Shown: positions 599-20,220 of the stretch, one piece after another | Position numbering within the stretch: position 1 is the stretch's first letter | How the letters are laid out: each line of letters begins with the position of its first letter | Virus record (IMG/VR): IMGVR_UViG_3300033999_000287 | Coordinates: 1 to 27,255 of that record | DNA from: a virus | Reading direction: 5' to 3' (one strand) | Length of the DNA stretch: 27,255 nucleotides | The notes under the pieces: generated by a model | The model's input: only the letters and a program-made list of their open reading frames with translations | Told to the model about the DNA's origin: nothing | The model's database searches: none | Made by a program: the position numbers and the translations under genes

Positions 599-808
599 AT
601 GCTTGTTTTGACCAGGAAGGTGAATGAGCGGATCGTGTGCTCGAATGGGATGGTGATCACAGTCTTGGCGATCAATGGCTCATCGGTGCGAATTGGGATT
701 AAGGCCCCGCCCGATGTGACGATCTTGCGGTCGGAGCTGTGCCACCCAACTCGCGGAAGGGCGGAGAATGCCAATGAGTCGCACAGTCACAATCTGCGAA
801 CACGGTGA
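599..808 (+). CDS. csrA: Phage-borne CsrA/RsmA-like RNA-binding regulator
   Basis: The 69-residue product starts MLVLTRKVNERI and continues ITVLAI, then VRIGIKAPPDVTILRSEL. This is the CsrA fold signature: MLVLTRK strand 1, a G-x-x-I-x-I/V turn, and the VRIGIxAPxxVxVxRxEL strand with the RNA-contacting arginine. CsrA dimers bind GGA-containing hairpins, usually over ribosome binding sites, and alter translation and mRNA decay. A strong ribosome binding site (AGAAAGGAGG, 583-592) precedes the ATG, and the leader contains several GGA triplets, as expected for an autoregulated csrA; that regulation is inference. The gene follows recT by 35 bases and its 3' end overlaps the next small gene by about 35 bases. 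The tail after residue 50 (HPTRGRAENANESHSHN) is polar and not conserved. Family assignment is secure; the role in the phage is unknown. Confidence 0.9.
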   Translation: MLVLTRKVNERIVCSNGMVITVLAINGSSVRIGIKAPPDVTILRSELCHPTRGRAENANESHSHNLRTR

Positions 809-1396: not shown

Positions 1397-2341
1397 ATGG
1401 ATGACTGGATTATTTTGACCTATGATATCGCCGACCGTCGCGAGGTGGGGATCATTGCCTCCCAGATGCGGCGTTCGCGATTTGAGGTGGTGGGGTATTT
1501 GGTCACCCTGTGGGGATGGTTTTCTCGAGAAACCCCCAACGGGCACGTGCAGATCGACGTGGCGACTCTCGCGGACGTCCTAGGGGTTCCGCGGCGCTTC
1601 CTCGACTGTCTCCTGGCCGTTGGCTGGCTTTCCGAGAACGACGGCATCTTACGTATTCCCCATTGGGACCGATGGCTCTCGCCGTCAGCAAAAGCCCGGC
1701 ATGCGGCGGCGTACTATCAGCGGTTTCGCCGGGCGCAGAATGGTGAGGAAGCTAAGATGAAAGCTGCACGCGCTCCCCCGGAACCTGTTCGACAAATGTT
1801 TGACAAATGTCAAACAAATGTCAAACATCCTTATAACGACGTCGACGACGACGAAAAAAGGGAAAAAGGGGGTCTGGGGGAAAAGGGGGAGGCCCCGGGG
1901 TCGTCGGACATTTGTCCGGACAAACGTCAGACGTCGGAAATCGTGGCGTGGTTTCGCACTTACGGGCGGATATGGGGCCCGCGGGGTCCGACCAGCAAGC
2001 GGGACCGTGCCCTGCTCTGGCGGGTCTGTGCCCTGGCGGCGGCGGGGGAAACCTGGGCCCAGGCCGCCCTGGAGGCGCTGGCTGCTGGGAATCCAACCCG
2101 GCCAGGGGCCTATCTCCAGAAGCTGACCCTGGAACTCGGGCCGCGGGATCCGCATGTCAGTCTGGTGCTGGCCGCGATCCCGGTTCCGGCCGAGATCCAG
2201 CGGGGTCCGCCGCCGGCGAGCACGCCGCGAGACGTGCCGCGCGACGAGCAGCCTCTCTCGCCAGAAGAGGCGCGGGCCCTGATCGCGGAGGCCATGGCCG
2301 TCATTGGTCGCGGTCAGAATGGAAACGGAAAAGACGGTTAA
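1397..2341 (+). CDS. Phage replication initiator-like protein (helix-turn-helix N-terminal, DnaD-like architecture)
   Basis: The 314-residue product begins MDDWIILTYDIADRREVG and has an N-terminal ~100-residue region (SRFEVVGYLVTLWGWFSRETPNGHV ... ADVLGVPRRFLDCLLAVGWL ... IPHWDRWLS) arranged like the winged-helix domain of phage replication proteins of the O/DnaD-like type. Next comes a polar linker rich in K, E, G and D (residues ~120-180), then a helical domain (SEIVAWFRTYGRIWGPRGPTSKRDRALLWRVCALAAAGETWAQ), and a proline-rich tail ending in PEEARALIAEAMAVI. The linker-coding DNA holds three 11-bp direct repeats (1791-1823), the place where lambdoid phages keep their origin inside gene O. 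No ATG with a strong Shine-Dalgarno is obvious; ATG 1397 is the natural start. Parts of the tail-coding DNA are duplicated downstream (2341-2520). Initiator function is inference from architecture, location and iterons. Confidence 0.6.
   Translation: MDDWIILTYDIADRREVGIIASQMRRSRFEVVGYLVTLWGWFSRETPNGHVQIDVATLADVLGVPRRFLDCLLAVGWLSENDGILRIPHWDRWLSPSAKARHAAAYYQRFRRAQNGEEAKMKAARAPPEPVRQMFDKCQTNVKHPYNDVDDDEKREKGGLGEKGEAPGSSDICPDKRQTSEIVAWFRTYGRIWGPRGPTSKRDRALLWRVCALAAAGETWAQAALEALAAGNPTRPGAYLQKLTLELGPRDPHVSLVLAAIPVPAEIQRGPPPASTPRDVPRDEQPLSPEEARALIAEAMAVIGRGQNGNGKDG
1791..1826 (+). repeat. 11-bp iterons inside the replication gene (candidate phage origin)
   Basis: The octamer ACAAATGT occurs at 1792-1799, 1803-1810 and 1814-1821, an exact 11-bp period (about one helical turn). 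The longer unit is GACAAATGTYW with variation in its last bases. Its reverse complement ACATTTGT recurs at 1908-1915 inside the near-palindrome GGACATTTGTCC, followed by GGACAAACGTC. The interval between holds a strongly purine-biased tract (1853-1897). Repeats with helical spacing within an initiator gene are the classic layout of a phage origin. The repeats force a biased peptide (FDKCQTNVK), which suggests the DNA rather than the protein is under selection. Confidence 0.5.
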
Positions 2342-10928: not shown

Positions 10929-12494
10929 ATGCCGGAAGAAATGATTTTCATCGACACACAGAACAAGCAGGAGGAGCGGCGGTCCCTGGAACAGGCCGGC
11001 GCGGACCTGACCAAGATGAAAGCCGCCCCCAATTTGGGGCAGCCCCCTGTGCCGCACATTCTCACCTTCGTGGGGGTCTCCGGTGGGGCAGGAAAGACCT
11101 ATCTCCCTTCCGATGAGGCCCTTCAGCATAGTTGGGCGAATGCCCAGTACATGCGGCAGGATGCGGCGATTATGGAACCCCTGGAGGTCCGCAAGCGGGC
11201 CGTGGCCCTGCTAGACTGGCACCTAGAAGCGGACGACCCGGATGATCCGCAGCAATCACGGATGGTCGAAGAAATGACCTGGGTCTTAGGCAAGATTCCC
11301 CGCCTCACGCAATATCGCGAAGTCTTGCTGGAGGCCATCTTTTACGGCCGCTATGCGATCGTCAATACCTGCCAGTGGATGTTCCGCAAGGGCAAGGCCC
11401 TGGTCGGCATCAATCGCTGGAGGCCCCTCCACGGGGATAAACTGGTCTGGCGGTGGGATGACGAATCGGGCGATTACGACCCGGAATCGGTCGGGATTCG
11501 GATTGGCCGGACCTCGGCCATGAGTGACACGCTCCGCCGCTGGGAGACCTGGGCCCAGGCCAACGGGGGCCAGATACTCACAACCCATTTTGGTGTGGCC
11601 TTTTTCCCGCCCCCGCATCTGCGTGATCTGATCGTGGTCCATCGGCACATGGTGGAGGATGGGGATTGGCATAACCCCAATAATGCCGCCCGCATTTTCG
11701 GCGTGGGTATCCGATCCCGGCTGTATTGGACCTGGTATCAGAAGCAAGAGGCCCTGGCCTGGCTGATGGAATATCTCGAACGGTCGGCGTTCGGGTTGGA
11801 GCTGTGGTACTATCCCGCGGGTTCGGAGCAGGCCAAGCAGGCCACGATTGAGGCGGCCACGGAGCGGATCGGCAATGCCCGCAATATCCTGGTGATTCCC
11901 CGCCCCGCGGGACCAGAAGGCCAGATGTTTGGGGTGGAAGTGATCGAGCGGAATATGGCCGGGGCCTCGGCCCTGAAAGACATCGTGATGGAGTATTTCG
12001 GCCACCAGATCAAGCGCTATATCCTAGGCCAGACATTGACTACTGAGGCCCACGCCACGGGCTTAGGGAGCAATCTGGCCTCGGTGCACCTGGATACATT
12101 CCTGCAAATCGTCAAGTACGACGCGCAGAATCTGGCCGAAACCCTGACCAGTGAATTGCTGGCCAAGCTGGTCAAATGGAATTATCCCTGGATGGCCGAG
12201 AATCCCTTGCGGCTGGTCATCGAAACGGAAAAACCCGATGCCCTGGAGCGTCTTCAGGCCATTCAGGCGGCCTATCAGATGGGTCTCAAGGTTCGCGCCC
12301 GGGATGTCTGGGAGGTGCTGGGATTGGCTGAACCCCGGGAACATGATGAGGTCCTGGCCATCAATCAGGGGGCGGAACGCCCAGCCCATCGGGCGCCGGC
12401 CGGGGAAGACCTTCTCCTGAACGGGGCGGGGGAGGTCCCCCCAGACCCTTTCTCCGGCTTGATCAACCACCCTCCTCTCGCCGGCACGGACTGA
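10929..12494 (+). CDS. Portal protein 1 (DUF935 / Mu gp29-like)
   Basis: The 521-residue product has the DUF935 portal pattern: LEVRKRAVALLDWHLEADD (~84-102) near the clip/stem region, FYGRYAIVNT, HGDKLVWRWD, RSRLYWTWYQKQEALAWLME, then the signature QIKRYILGQTLTTEAHATGL and GSNLASVHLD (~360-389). Portals form the dodecameric ring at one capsid vertex through which DNA enters and leaves. Residues 1-55 include GVSGGAGKTYL, which superficially resembles a P-loop but lies outside the conserved fold. A closely related second portal is encoded at 17767-20220: 52 of 64 residues are identical in the block beginning at residue 357 here and 342 there. The tail after residue 465 is proline-rich and has a C6 run at 12437-12442. 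Confidence 0.88.
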   Translation: MPEEMIFIDTQNKQEERRSLEQAGADLTKMKAAPNLGQPPVPHILTFVGVSGGAGKTYLPSDEALQHSWANAQYMRQDAAIMEPLEVRKRAVALLDWHLEADDPDDPQQSRMVEEMTWVLGKIPRLTQYREVLLEAIFYGRYAIVNTCQWMFRKGKALVGINRWRPLHGDKLVWRWDDESGDYDPESVGIRIGRTSAMSDTLRRWETWAQANGGQILTTHFGVAFFPPPHLRDLIVVHRHMVEDGDWHNPNNAARIFGVGIRSRLYWTWYQKQEALAWLMEYLERSAFGLELWYYPAGSEQAKQATIEAATERIGNARNILVIPRPAGPEGQMFGVEVIERNMAGASALKDIVMEYFGHQIKRYILGQTLTTEAHATGLGSNLASVHLDTFLQIVKYDAQNLAETLTSELLAKLVKWNYPWMAENPLRLVIETEKPDALERLQAIQAAYQMGLKVRARDVWEVLGLAEPREHDEVLAINQGAERPAHRAPAGEDLLLNGAGEVPPDPFSGLINHPPLAGTD

Positions 12495-17766: not shown

Positions 17767-20220
17767 ATGCCGGGTGACACGCTCTATCTGGTGGATAGCC
17801 AGGGGGTCCACGAGATTCCCGGCATGCCCCCCGGGAGGGGGCAATCGCTCTTTCCCCATGGGGCAGGCTTCATCAGTCTCTTCGGGGGCGGGGCGGCCCG
17901 AGTCTACTGGCCCTCAGATCAAGCCCTCACCCGGGCCAGGCAACACGCCGTGCTGATGCGGGCCGATGCCGCCGTGATGGAGTGCGTGGAGCTCCGGCAG
18001 CGGGCCGTGGCCCTGTTGGATTGGCGGGTGGAATGCGATAAGGAGAATGACCCGCAGTATACCGATGCCCGCGAGAAGCTTACGGCCATCTGCCAGCGGA
18101 TCCCCCGTTTTATGCAATACCGGGAGAATCTCCTGCATGCCCTCTGGTATGGCCGCTACGCCCTGGCCCACCGCTACCGCTGGGACTGGCTGGAGGGTGA
18201 GAAGCTGGTGGTTGTGGCCTCCTGGATGCCTATCCACGGGGACAAACTGGTCTGGAAGATCGAGGCCGATGCGGGGTCGATCCTGGATGGGATCGGGGTC
18301 CGGGTGGGAGGCGGGACGGGCCTTAGCGAGGAGGTCAAACGCTGGCAGGATGAGCACCGGGCCCAGATCGAGTCCACGGATTATGGCTGGGCCTATTTTC
18401 CCCCTCCAGGGATGCGGGAGCTGTTAATCGTCCATCGCCATTACATCGAGGATGGCGAATATGAGGAACCCCGCAACGCCGCACGGATCTATGGGGTGGG
18501 GCTGCGGGACCGGATCTATTGGACCTGGTACCAGCGGCAAGAGGCCCTGGCCTGGTTGATGGAGTTTCTGGAGCGTTCGGCCTTTGGGATCGAACTCTGG
18601 TACTACCCCGACGGGAATCCCCAGGGACGGGAGGAGATGAAACAGGCGGCCGCCGAGCGGGTGGGTCCCGGCAAGAATATCCTGCTCATCCCCCGCCCGC
18701 CCGGGGTGGAGGGGGCGGCCTATGGCGTGGAGCGGATCGAGCCCTCGATGGCCGGGGCCCAGATTCTCAAGGAGATCCTCACCGACTTCTTTGGCCACCA
18801 AATCAAGCGCTATGTCTTGGGCCAAACGCTGACCACCGAGGCCCACGCCACGGGATTGGGATCGAATCTGGCCTCGATCCACTTGGACACCTTTCTCCAG
18901 ATTGTCCGCTACGATGCCACCAATCTCCAGGAGACACTCACCGAGCAGTTGATCCGCCGCCTGGTGGCCTGGAACTGGCCCGGCCTGGACCCCACGGCCT
19001 TTCGCTTTGTCATCGAGGTGGAAAAGGAGGACGTGCGGGAGCGGGTGGAGGCCCTGCGGACGGCCTTCGATATGGGGCTCAAGATCAAGGCGGCGGAGGT
19101 GCGGGACATCCTCAAGCTCTCGCCAGTCGCCGAGGGTGAGGACTTCCTGCAAAATCCGGCCTATCGAGAATCGATGCAGGCTGCGCCACCCCCGGGGGTG
19201 GAAGCCTTCAGTGAGACAGGTGAGCGGGAACGCTACCGACGACCGCCATTCCCGTCCAATCCCTCGCGGGGGCAGACCTTCGTTTATGAAAAGAAGGTCT
19301 ATGCCTACATCCCCAATAAGGCCGGCCGCCTGCAGTGGCAGGTGGTTGGAGAGGACAGGCCGAGCCTAGGCCAGCAGGTCTTTGTCAGCCCGAACAGGGA
19401 ATCGGGCCTGAATTTCGCCCAGGCGCGGGAGAAAACTAAGGGCAGCGGGCAGGCCCGGATTCGCACCAGGGCGGCAGAGGTCTGCCAGGCGCACGGTCAT
19501 CCGGTCCGTCGGATGTGGGATGTAATTGGTGATTGGGACGGTGGTTCCGAGAATAGCCTCTTGATAGAATTGGAGAGGGTGCCGGTGGTGGATTTGGAGC
19601 GGATCGCGGCCCACCTGGGCAAGGAATTCGACCAGGAGGCGGTCGCGGTCTTTCGCAGCAGGCGGCAGGGAACGGACCTCCGCTGGACGGCCGGATTCCG
19701 CCTGCCAGCGGAGGAGGTGATTCCGGTCCTGGAGAAGCACGGGATCGGCAACCGCACCATCATCGAGAGACCAGGTGGCTGCCTGGTCCTGGTGTGTGGT
19801 GAAGCGAAAGACATCCGTCCCAGTGTGAACGAAGTTGTGAAAGAGCTGGGGTGTGTGAAAGAGTTTTCTAAAGGTGTCCGGGGCGATTTCCGCCTGGTCT
19901 GGCGGAACGAATACGACAGCATTATCGGTGAGACTGGAGAGAGGAGGGAACACATGGCCGATCTTGGTGAAGGTCGAGAGAGGGGGGAACAAACCCCTCA
20001 AGAACAGGTCCCCTGGTTCATGAACGATGAGATTGTCAACCAGCTATCGACCAAGTATCGCAATCTGGCCCTGACCCAGCGTAAGAGTTATTTGGCTAAG
20101 CGAGAGCGGAGTCCTGAGGAAAACGAACGTCTTTTCGAAGAGATAAAACAGGAGTTTTTGGCGCGGGGTGACGAGTGGGAAGAGCCGGAGGATGACGAAG
20201 ACGAGCAGATCATCCTCTGA
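17767..20220 (+). CDS. Portal protein 2: DUF935-like portal with large C-terminal extension
   Basis: The 817-residue product repeats the portal 1 architecture over residues ~1-460: ELRQRAVALLDWRVECDK, WYGRYALAHRYRWDW, IHGDKLVWKIE, RDRIYWTWYQRQEALAWLME, QIKRYVLGQTLTTEAHATGL with GSNLASIHLD. In the 64-residue block from residue 342, 52 residues equal portal 1. Residues ~480-817 have no counterpart in portal 1: RGQTFVYEKKVYAYIPNKAG, then an alpha/beta segment around IGDWDGGSENSLLIELERVP and LVLVCGEAKDIRPSVNE, then a highly charged tail (KRERSPEENERLFEEIKQEF). The ENSLLIE-containing segment weakly recalls a domain in phage structural proteins; its function is not known. Part of the tail-coding DNA (19934-19990) is purine-rich spacer-like sequence. 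It may form mixed rings with portal 1 or a separate connector. Confidence 0.8.
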   Translation: MPGDTLYLVDSQGVHEIPGMPPGRGQSLFPHGAGFISLFGGGAARVYWPSDQALTRARQHAVLMRADAAVMECVELRQRAVALLDWRVECDKENDPQYTDAREKLTAICQRIPRFMQYRENLLHALWYGRYALAHRYRWDWLEGEKLVVVASWMPIHGDKLVWKIEADAGSILDGIGVRVGGGTGLSEEVKRWQDEHRAQIESTDYGWAYFPPPGMRELLIVHRHYIEDGEYEEPRNAARIYGVGLRDRIYWTWYQRQEALAWLMEFLERSAFGIELWYYPDGNPQGREEMKQAAAERVGPGKNILLIPRPPGVEGAAYGVERIEPSMAGAQILKEILTDFFGHQIKRYVLGQTLTTEAHATGLGSNLASIHLDTFLQIVRYDATNLQETLTEQLIRRLVAWNWPGLDPTAFRFVIEVEKEDVRERVEALRTAFDMGLKIKAAEVRDILKLSPVAEGEDFLQNPAYRESMQAAPPPGVEAFSETGERERYRRPPFPSNPSRGQTFVYEKKVYAYIPNKAGRLQWQVVGEDRPSLGQQVFVSPNRESGLNFAQAREKTKGSGQARIRTRAAEVCQAHGHPVRRMWDVIGDWDGGSENSLLIELERVPVVDLERIAAHLGKEFDQEAVAVFRSRRQGTDLRWTAGFRLPAEEVIPVLEKHGIGNRTIIERPGGCLVLVCGEAKDIRPSVNEVVKELGCVKEFSKGVRGDFRLVWRNEYDSIIGETGERREHMADLGEGRERGEQTPQEQVPWFMNDEIVNQLSTKYRNLALTQRKSYLAKRERSPEENERLFEEIKQEFLARGDEWEEPEDDEDEQIIL

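What the first reader, a model, noticed from the sequence alone, without database searches (positions are those of the whole stretch)
1791..1935. Helically phased iterons within the replication gene
Three ACAAATGT octamers spaced exactly 11 bp, an inverted copy 87 bp further in GGACATTTGTCC and a purine tract between. This is the lambdoid-style layout of an origin within the initiator gene, but with an 11-bp spacing much tighter than lambda iterons.
Basis: partly seen in the sequence, partly recalled or inferred. Interest (0 to 1): 0.55.

Follow-up and report, generated by a model that had tools for sequence, protein, structure and literature searches.

The report
Phage replication origin inside initiator gene
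Short repeats spaced one DNA turn apart inside a phage's replication-starter gene look like that protein's own binding sites, the predicted start point for copying the phage genome, and similar layouts occur in many unrelated phages.

Summary
The 11-bp repetition was never reached in 20,000 codon-order shuffles, and is read in three frames, so the peptide is not repeated. The gene encodes a phage replication-initiation protein (PHROG 2509). In its model a confident winged-helix N-domain is followed by a disordered linker, and linker and boxes coincide.

Relatives support a DNA-level element. Two near relatives keep the box spacings although the peptide and one orientation change. In the wider family most members carry 10-12-bp-phased boxes of another sequence (usually GTAACGC) followed by a purine tract written in otherwise rare AGA/AGG arginine codons. 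Firmicute phages with an initiator not detectably related by sequence carry the same ACAAATGT boxes in the same place.

Best reading: an in-gene origin, boxes bound by the protein's own N-domain. Lambda, SPP1 and plasmid pSK41 work like this; the compact shared box-and-purine design is the new part. No binding or replication experiment was done.

The parts
1397..2341 (+). replication-initiation gene, 314 aa
   Evidence: phrog_2509 E=6e-19 and phrog_9474 E=6e-17, both 'replication initiation protein'; 69% identical relative L001
1427..1681 (+). codes for the predicted winged-helix DNA-binding domain (aa 11-95)
   Evidence: AlphaFold2 model, blocks of pLDDT 92-98 for aa 11-90; best structural matches RepA_N initiator N-domains 5kbj, 4pql, Z 6.1 over 76 residues
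1592..1621 (+). codes for helix 66-75, the presumed recognition helix (starts Arg-Arg)
   Evidence: helix followed by two strands in the model; K/R at its first two positions in 6 of 6 ACA-box members against 3 of 71 GTAACG members
1784..1918 (+). codes for the disordered linker aa 130-174, which overlaps boxes and tract
   Evidence: pLDDT under 50 at 130-155 and 157-174
1792..1799 (+). box 1 ACAAATGT
1803..1810 (+). box 2 ACAAATGT, 11 bp after box 1
1814..1821 (+). box 3 ACAAATGT, 11 bp after box 2
1853..1892 (+). purine tract with four runs of 3-5 G, kept almost letter for letter in L001 and L253
1908..1915 (-). box 4 ACAAATGT, inverted, 94 bp (start to start) after box 3
1920..1927 (+). box 5 ACAAACGT, 12 bp after box 4, forms a palindrome with it
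   Evidence: I4
1922..2173 (+). codes for the helical C-terminal domain aa 176-259 (function inferred: replisome recruitment)
   Evidence: model helices 176-259

Best explanation
It is the phage's replication origin, carried inside the gene of its own initiator. Shown here: the boxes, their helical phasing, the purine tract, their conservation as DNA, and their placement in the stretch that codes for a disordered linker between a predicted winged-helix domain and a helical C-domain. Inferred: several initiator molecules bind the boxes through the winged helix, side by side on one face of the helix because the boxes are one turn apart; the array bends the DNA and opens or loads onto the neighbouring purine-asymmetric tract; the C-domain then brings in the helicase and primase of the replisome. 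The boxes can sit in the gene because the linker tolerates almost any peptide.
For: Initiator identity. Boxes confined to this gene in 27 kb. Repeat beyond 20,000 shuffles and in three reading frames. Boxes keep 11-, 94- and 12-bp spacings in L001 and L253 although the peptide differs and the second left-hand box is inverted. Family-wide: 45 of 48 non-redundant relatives, the window included, have at least 2 boxes of one class in the linker; GTAACG/CGTTAC averages 1.82 per gene at nt 350-400 and at most 0.02 per 50-nt bin from nt 450 on (96 genes); purine tract significant in 20 of 48 and placed at nt 297-456 in all 20; Arg codons AGR 0.81 at codons 130-140 against 0.11 at codons 0-100. ACAAATGT pairs 11 bp apart lie mid-ORF in 48 of 124 cases against 9 of 126 at all other spacings 8-34 (redundant: 20 protein clusters at 70% for the 11-bp cases). 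The first box stands in all three frames, 11, 6 and 3 of 20 genes. Precedents: SPP1 gp38 binds direct repeats inside gene 38 (PMC6316719, passages); lambda ori lies within O and its A+T-rich part has almost all purines in one strand (PMC5043065, passages); pSK41 Rep winged-helix N-domain binds four boxes within rep, whose ori-coded central linker is dispensable in trans (PMC5703833, passages).
Against: No binding or replication data for this protein. The tract is G-rich, about 45% A+T, not an A+T-rich unwinding region. Most relatives in the same family use a different box (GTAACGC), so ACAAATGT itself is not a family trait: 3 of 48. About a tenth of relatives (9 of 94) show no class with two boxes; VW-6S, PAN70, Olaya and CP2 gave no significant repeat. 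L289 has pyrimidines where others have purines. GC skew shows no switch near the gene. No helicase or loader was found beside it among the ten proteins scanned.
Confidence: 0.85

Rival explanations
1. The boxes are an operator: the initiator, or another phage regulator, binds them to control transcription of its own gene, with no role as origin.
For: Initiators often repress themselves (recalled). In relatives of the GTAACG class a second set of boxes lies further upstream, in the codons of the winged-helix domain (66 of 71).
Against: The boxes lie about 400 bp downstream of the start codon, no promoter is known there, and box-bearing linkers carry a purine tract in 20 of 48 relatives, as in known origins.
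Confidence: 0.08
2. The repeats are a by-product of the peptide: a charged, low-complexity linker whose codons happen to repeat.
For: With the peptide fixed, 8 of 20,000 codon draws gave three exact copies; such linkers are easily made by slippage.
Against: An 11-nt period changes frame at each copy, so the peptide has no repeat; frames differ between genes; relatives change peptide and keep boxes; AGR codons replace CGN mainly in the linker.
Confidence: 0.04
3. The boxes bind a host protein (for example a nucleoid or initiator protein of the host) rather than the phage initiator.
For: The box classes are shared by phages with initiators that are not detectably related by sequence.
Against: Phages of very different hosts share one box class, while relatives in one family differ; the presumed recognition helix varies with box class; N-domain and linker boxes agree in class.
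Confidence: 0.03

Closest known systems
Bacteriophage lambda ori within gene O
   Same: Array of repeats inside the initiator gene next to a tract with purines on one strand (PMC5043065, passages).
   Different: Lambda repeats are longer inverted repeats bound by O dimers (same paper for inverted repeats and dimers; length recalled); the window protein has no Pfam O-family match and its tract is G-rich.
RepA_N plasmid pSK41 (Rep boxes within rep)
   Same: Winged-helix N-domain, ori-coded linker that is dispensable in trans, helical C-domain (PMC5703833, passages); top structural matches of the window N-domain are RepA_N N-domains, Z 6.1.
   Different: Phage, not plasmid; no Pfam RepA_N match; Z 6 is modest and unrelated winged helices reach 5.7.
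SPP1 oriL within gene 38
   Same: Initiator binds direct repeats inside its own gene beside an unwinding element (PMC6316719, passages).
   Different: Repeat sequence and initiator family not compared here.
Phage_rep_org_N (PF09681) initiators of Streptococcus, Enterococcus, Lactococcus and Leuconostoc phages
   Same: Same ACAAATGT boxes, often 11 bp apart, at about codons 120-140, followed by CCAGAGATAGAGATAGAG or similar.
   Different: No detectable sequence relation of the N-domains (hhalign probability 0.3% and 1.6%).
PHROG 2509 / YdaU-like initiators (Pseudomonas, enteric, planctomycete elements)
   Same: The window protein's own family; boxes plus purine tract in the linker.
   Different: Most use GTAACGC boxes and (AGAGA/AGAAG)n tracts.

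Membership tests
PHROG 2509 replication-initiation proteins | Profile match of the protein | tested here: met
   E=6.2e-19 over aa 3-124
In-gene iteron origins | Helically phased initiator-type repeats within the initiator coding region | tested here: met
   Three boxes at 11 bp, two more at 94 and 12 bp
In-gene iteron origins | Initiator binds the repeats | not testable with these tools
   No binding data
In-gene iteron origins | Fragment supports autonomous replication | not testable with these tools
   Needs a plasmid test
Lambda O / ori lambda | O-family initiator (Pfam) | tested here: not met
   No Pfam family at E<=0.1 for the protein
Lambda O / ori lambda | A+T-rich, purine-asymmetric region beside the repeats | tested here: inconclusive
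   Purine asymmetry met, A+T-richness not (about 45%, direct count)
RepA_N initiators | RepA_N domain by sequence | tested here: not met
   No Pfam match; no PDB sequence match of the family profile
RepA_N initiators | Winged-helix N-domain of the RepA_N fold | tested here: inconclusive
   Best of 995 chains, Z 6.1, 76 residues, 2.8 A, but within 1 Z of CAP-type domains
Phage_rep_org_N (PF09681) | Profile match | tested here: not met
   Window protein no match; 8 of 8 Firmicute members match

The most novel reading that the evidence does not exclude
Phages of several phyla share one compact origin design, written into the linker of otherwise unrelated initiators: one-turn-spaced boxes from a small set of interchangeable classes (GTAACGC, GTCACGC, ACAAATGT, TGTCCGG), whose class switches together with the presumed recognition helix and with extra boxes in the N-domain codons, followed by a purine-repeat tract that acts as a sequence-specific single-strand loading site, comparable to the DnaA-trio of bacterial origins (analogy recalled).
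Probability: 0.4. Interest if true: 0.75.

Novelty: new variant of a known kind. Interest (0 to 1): 0.52.

Why it matters
Origins of most temperate phages are unmapped. If this design holds, the origin and initiator specificity of many hundreds of phages can be read from one gene, and the pairing of box class with a short helix gives a direct test of how initiators switch specificity. It also gives small, portable replicons for hosts that lack vectors.

Tried and rejected
Global enrichment of 11-bp pairs: rejected. In the all-spacing scan of IMG/VR, 11 bp is no peak (6 of 127 pairs); the excess exists only inside initiator-like genes.

Recognition helix 'Arg-Arg = ACAAATGT': weakened. After a further scan the rule became K/R at either position, with exceptions L478, L490 and L509, which have GTAACG boxes. 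The Fisher p of 3.5e-7 ignores shared ancestry, and the second set was drawn by similarity to L256.

GC skew: no information. PDB by sequence: nothing for either family. Foldseek on the window model: no match under E 0.001. The lag test finds nothing significant in VW-6S, PAN70, Olaya and CP2. In the Firmicute family the purine test passes in 15 of 29; its arginine codons are already AGR-rich elsewhere, so that test says little there.

Literature: nine of ten paper searches used; from titles and abstracts none listed a paper on this box-and-tract design. TP-J34's record marks '7 direct 6 bp-repeats' in its initiator gene, so the tract has been seen before; the passages read from its paper do not call it an origin (PMC3952083). 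I looked for the place of the Rac origin oriJ; the passage only says that it is active (PMC3945230), not where it lies; PMC11014345 passages did not say either.

Rows dropped: 7 genes under 450 nt, 1, 3. L335 was left out of alignment A3. L001 and L252 are the same contig, as are L256 and L471.

Full report
What is there. The window is a 27,255-bp virus record of IMG/VR. A 314-codon gene at 1397-2341 encodes a phage replication-initiation protein (phrog_2509 E=6e-19, phrog_9474 E=6e-17; no Pfam family). It lies between a RecT-type gene and a RusA resolvase, with terminase genes further on. Inside it are ACAAATGT at 1792, 1803 and 1814, an inverted copy at 1908 and ACAAACGT at 1920, and no other copy in the record. 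Between the two groups lies a purine tract at 1853-1892.

More than chance. Neither the count (0 of 100 shuffles) nor the lag-11 repeat (0 of 20,000 codon-order shuffles) is expected. Eleven is not a multiple of three, so each copy is read in another frame and the peptide (VRQMFDKCQTNVK) does not repeat. Holding that peptide and redrawing codons gives three exact copies in 8 of 20,000 draws.

Close relatives. L001 (69% identical protein) and L253 (80% over the stretch held) keep an 11-bp pair on the left, with the second box inverted, and a 12-bp inverted pair on the right; the distance from the last left box to the right pair is 94 bp in the window and L001. In L253 a further box lies 83 bp on and the pair box again 94 bp on. 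The tract between is nearly identical. Left of the tract the peptide differs (VRQMFDKCQTNVKHP in the window, AASNKCSTFVRRL in L001).

The family. A profile of the N-domain (A1) brought 80 viral and 49 genomic loci, including Pseudomonas, enteric bacteria and Planctomycetes. Of 130 genes, the window included, 7 were too short and the rest gave 48 non-redundant genes. At least two boxes of one class lie in the linker of 45 of 48: GTAACG 33, GTCACG/GTGACG 6, ACAAAYGT 3, TGTCCGG 3. These classes were chosen after reading the sequences, so the count is descriptive; the independent codon-shuffle test finds a significant lag in 16 of 48, at 12 bp (7), 10 (5), 11 (2), 21 and 23, some of them caused by the purine repeat itself. 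A purine tract is significant in 20 of 48, always starting at nt 297-456. Its arginines are AGA or AGG (44 of 54 at codons 130-140) where codons 0-100 use CGN (208 of 234), which points to selection on the DNA. In 96 genes GTAACG/CGTTAC peaks at nt 350-400 and again at nt 100-200, in codons of the winged-helix domain; the two groups of boxes agree in class in 66 of 71 GTAACG genes and 6 of 8 GTCACG/GTGACG genes.

Other families. Together with a control scan over all spacings (also stopped at its limit), 48 of 124 pairs at 11 bp lie in the middle of a 200-350-aa ORF against 9 of 126 pairs at other spacings. The 11-bp cases form 20 clusters at 70% identity; many look like PF09681 replisome organisers (8 of 8 scanned match), others have different N-termini. 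PF09681 relatives fetched without regard to boxes (80 loci, nearest to L024 and so biased to it; 19 non-redundant) show the same boxes or variants followed by CCAGAGATAGAGATAGAG or similar. PF09681-type phages A500, SM1 and phiARI0923 carry GTAACG boxes and 52A carries GTCACG/GTGACG boxes. So the same classes recur in two initiator families whose profiles do not match, although both models contain a winged-helix-like N-domain.

Structure. The model of the window protein (47 sequences, mean pLDDT 73) has a confident winged helix at aa 11-95, a long helix to 125, a linker under pLDDT 50 at 130-174 and a helical C-domain. Boxes and tract code for aa 132-177. The best structural matches of the N-domain are RepA_N plasmid initiators, including a Rep-DNA complex (Z 6.1, 76 residues, 2.8 A), though CAP domains follow at 5.7. 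In the Firmicute model the C-domain matches DnaD (2zc2, Z 11.5, 75 residues, 2.0 A).

Mechanism. In pSK41 the winged-helix N-domain binds four boxes in the middle of rep, the part coded by the origin is a dispensable linker, and the C-domain is DnaD-like and contacts primase (PMC5703833, passages). Lambda and SPP1 have origins inside their initiator genes too (PMC5043065; PMC6316719; passages of both). The window fits this plan. What opens first is less clear here: the tract is G-rich, and its four G runs, kept in both close relatives, could fold into a quadruplex on the opened strand; this is speculation.

Verdict. It is a new variant of a known kind. The wider regularity (a small set of box classes and a purine tract in the linker of several initiator families) was not found in print by the nine searches listed under Tried and rejected, which cover open-licence papers only.

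Noticed in passing
L003:11940-12080 (IMGVR_UViG_3300038403_000036): An unrelated viral contig with several ACAAATGT copies 11 bp apart (three in a row) in a stretch without a long ORF; possibly an intergenic origin of the same box class.
   Followed up: no
L007, L009, L015, L016, L027, L030: Several viral contigs carry AACACAAATGTAACACAAATGTAACA or a one-letter variant outside any ORF of 100 aa, another 11-bp repeat of the box.
   Followed up: no
L361, L359, L534 and GTAACG members, gene nt 120-215: A second box cluster in the codons of the winged-helix domain (peptide GNA..SVT = GGTAACGC..GCGTTAC; GHA..VT = GGTCACGC..GCGTGAC in the other class); agrees in class with the linker boxes.
   Followed up: partly
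L124:400-490 and L125:1490-1600 (phages ECP1, 683R2): O-like genes with an 11-bp repeat of another word (TTGTCCAACGG, lag 11, p=0.005 for 683R2).
   Followed up: partly
L289 gene nt 363-420: A relative whose tract after the boxes is pyrimidine-rich on the coding strand, an exception to strand asymmetry.
   Followed up: no
window 1859-1888: Four runs of 3-5 G in the purine tract, conserved in L001 and L253: a possible G-quadruplex (by eye).
   Followed up: no
window 10929-12494 and 17767-20220: Two ORFs in one record share a similar N-terminal stretch (LPSD.AL...RAVALLDW), perhaps paralogous portal-like proteins.
   Followed up: no
window 599-808: A CsrA-type regulator gene (PF02599 E=7e-19) in the early region of a phage.
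   Followed up: no
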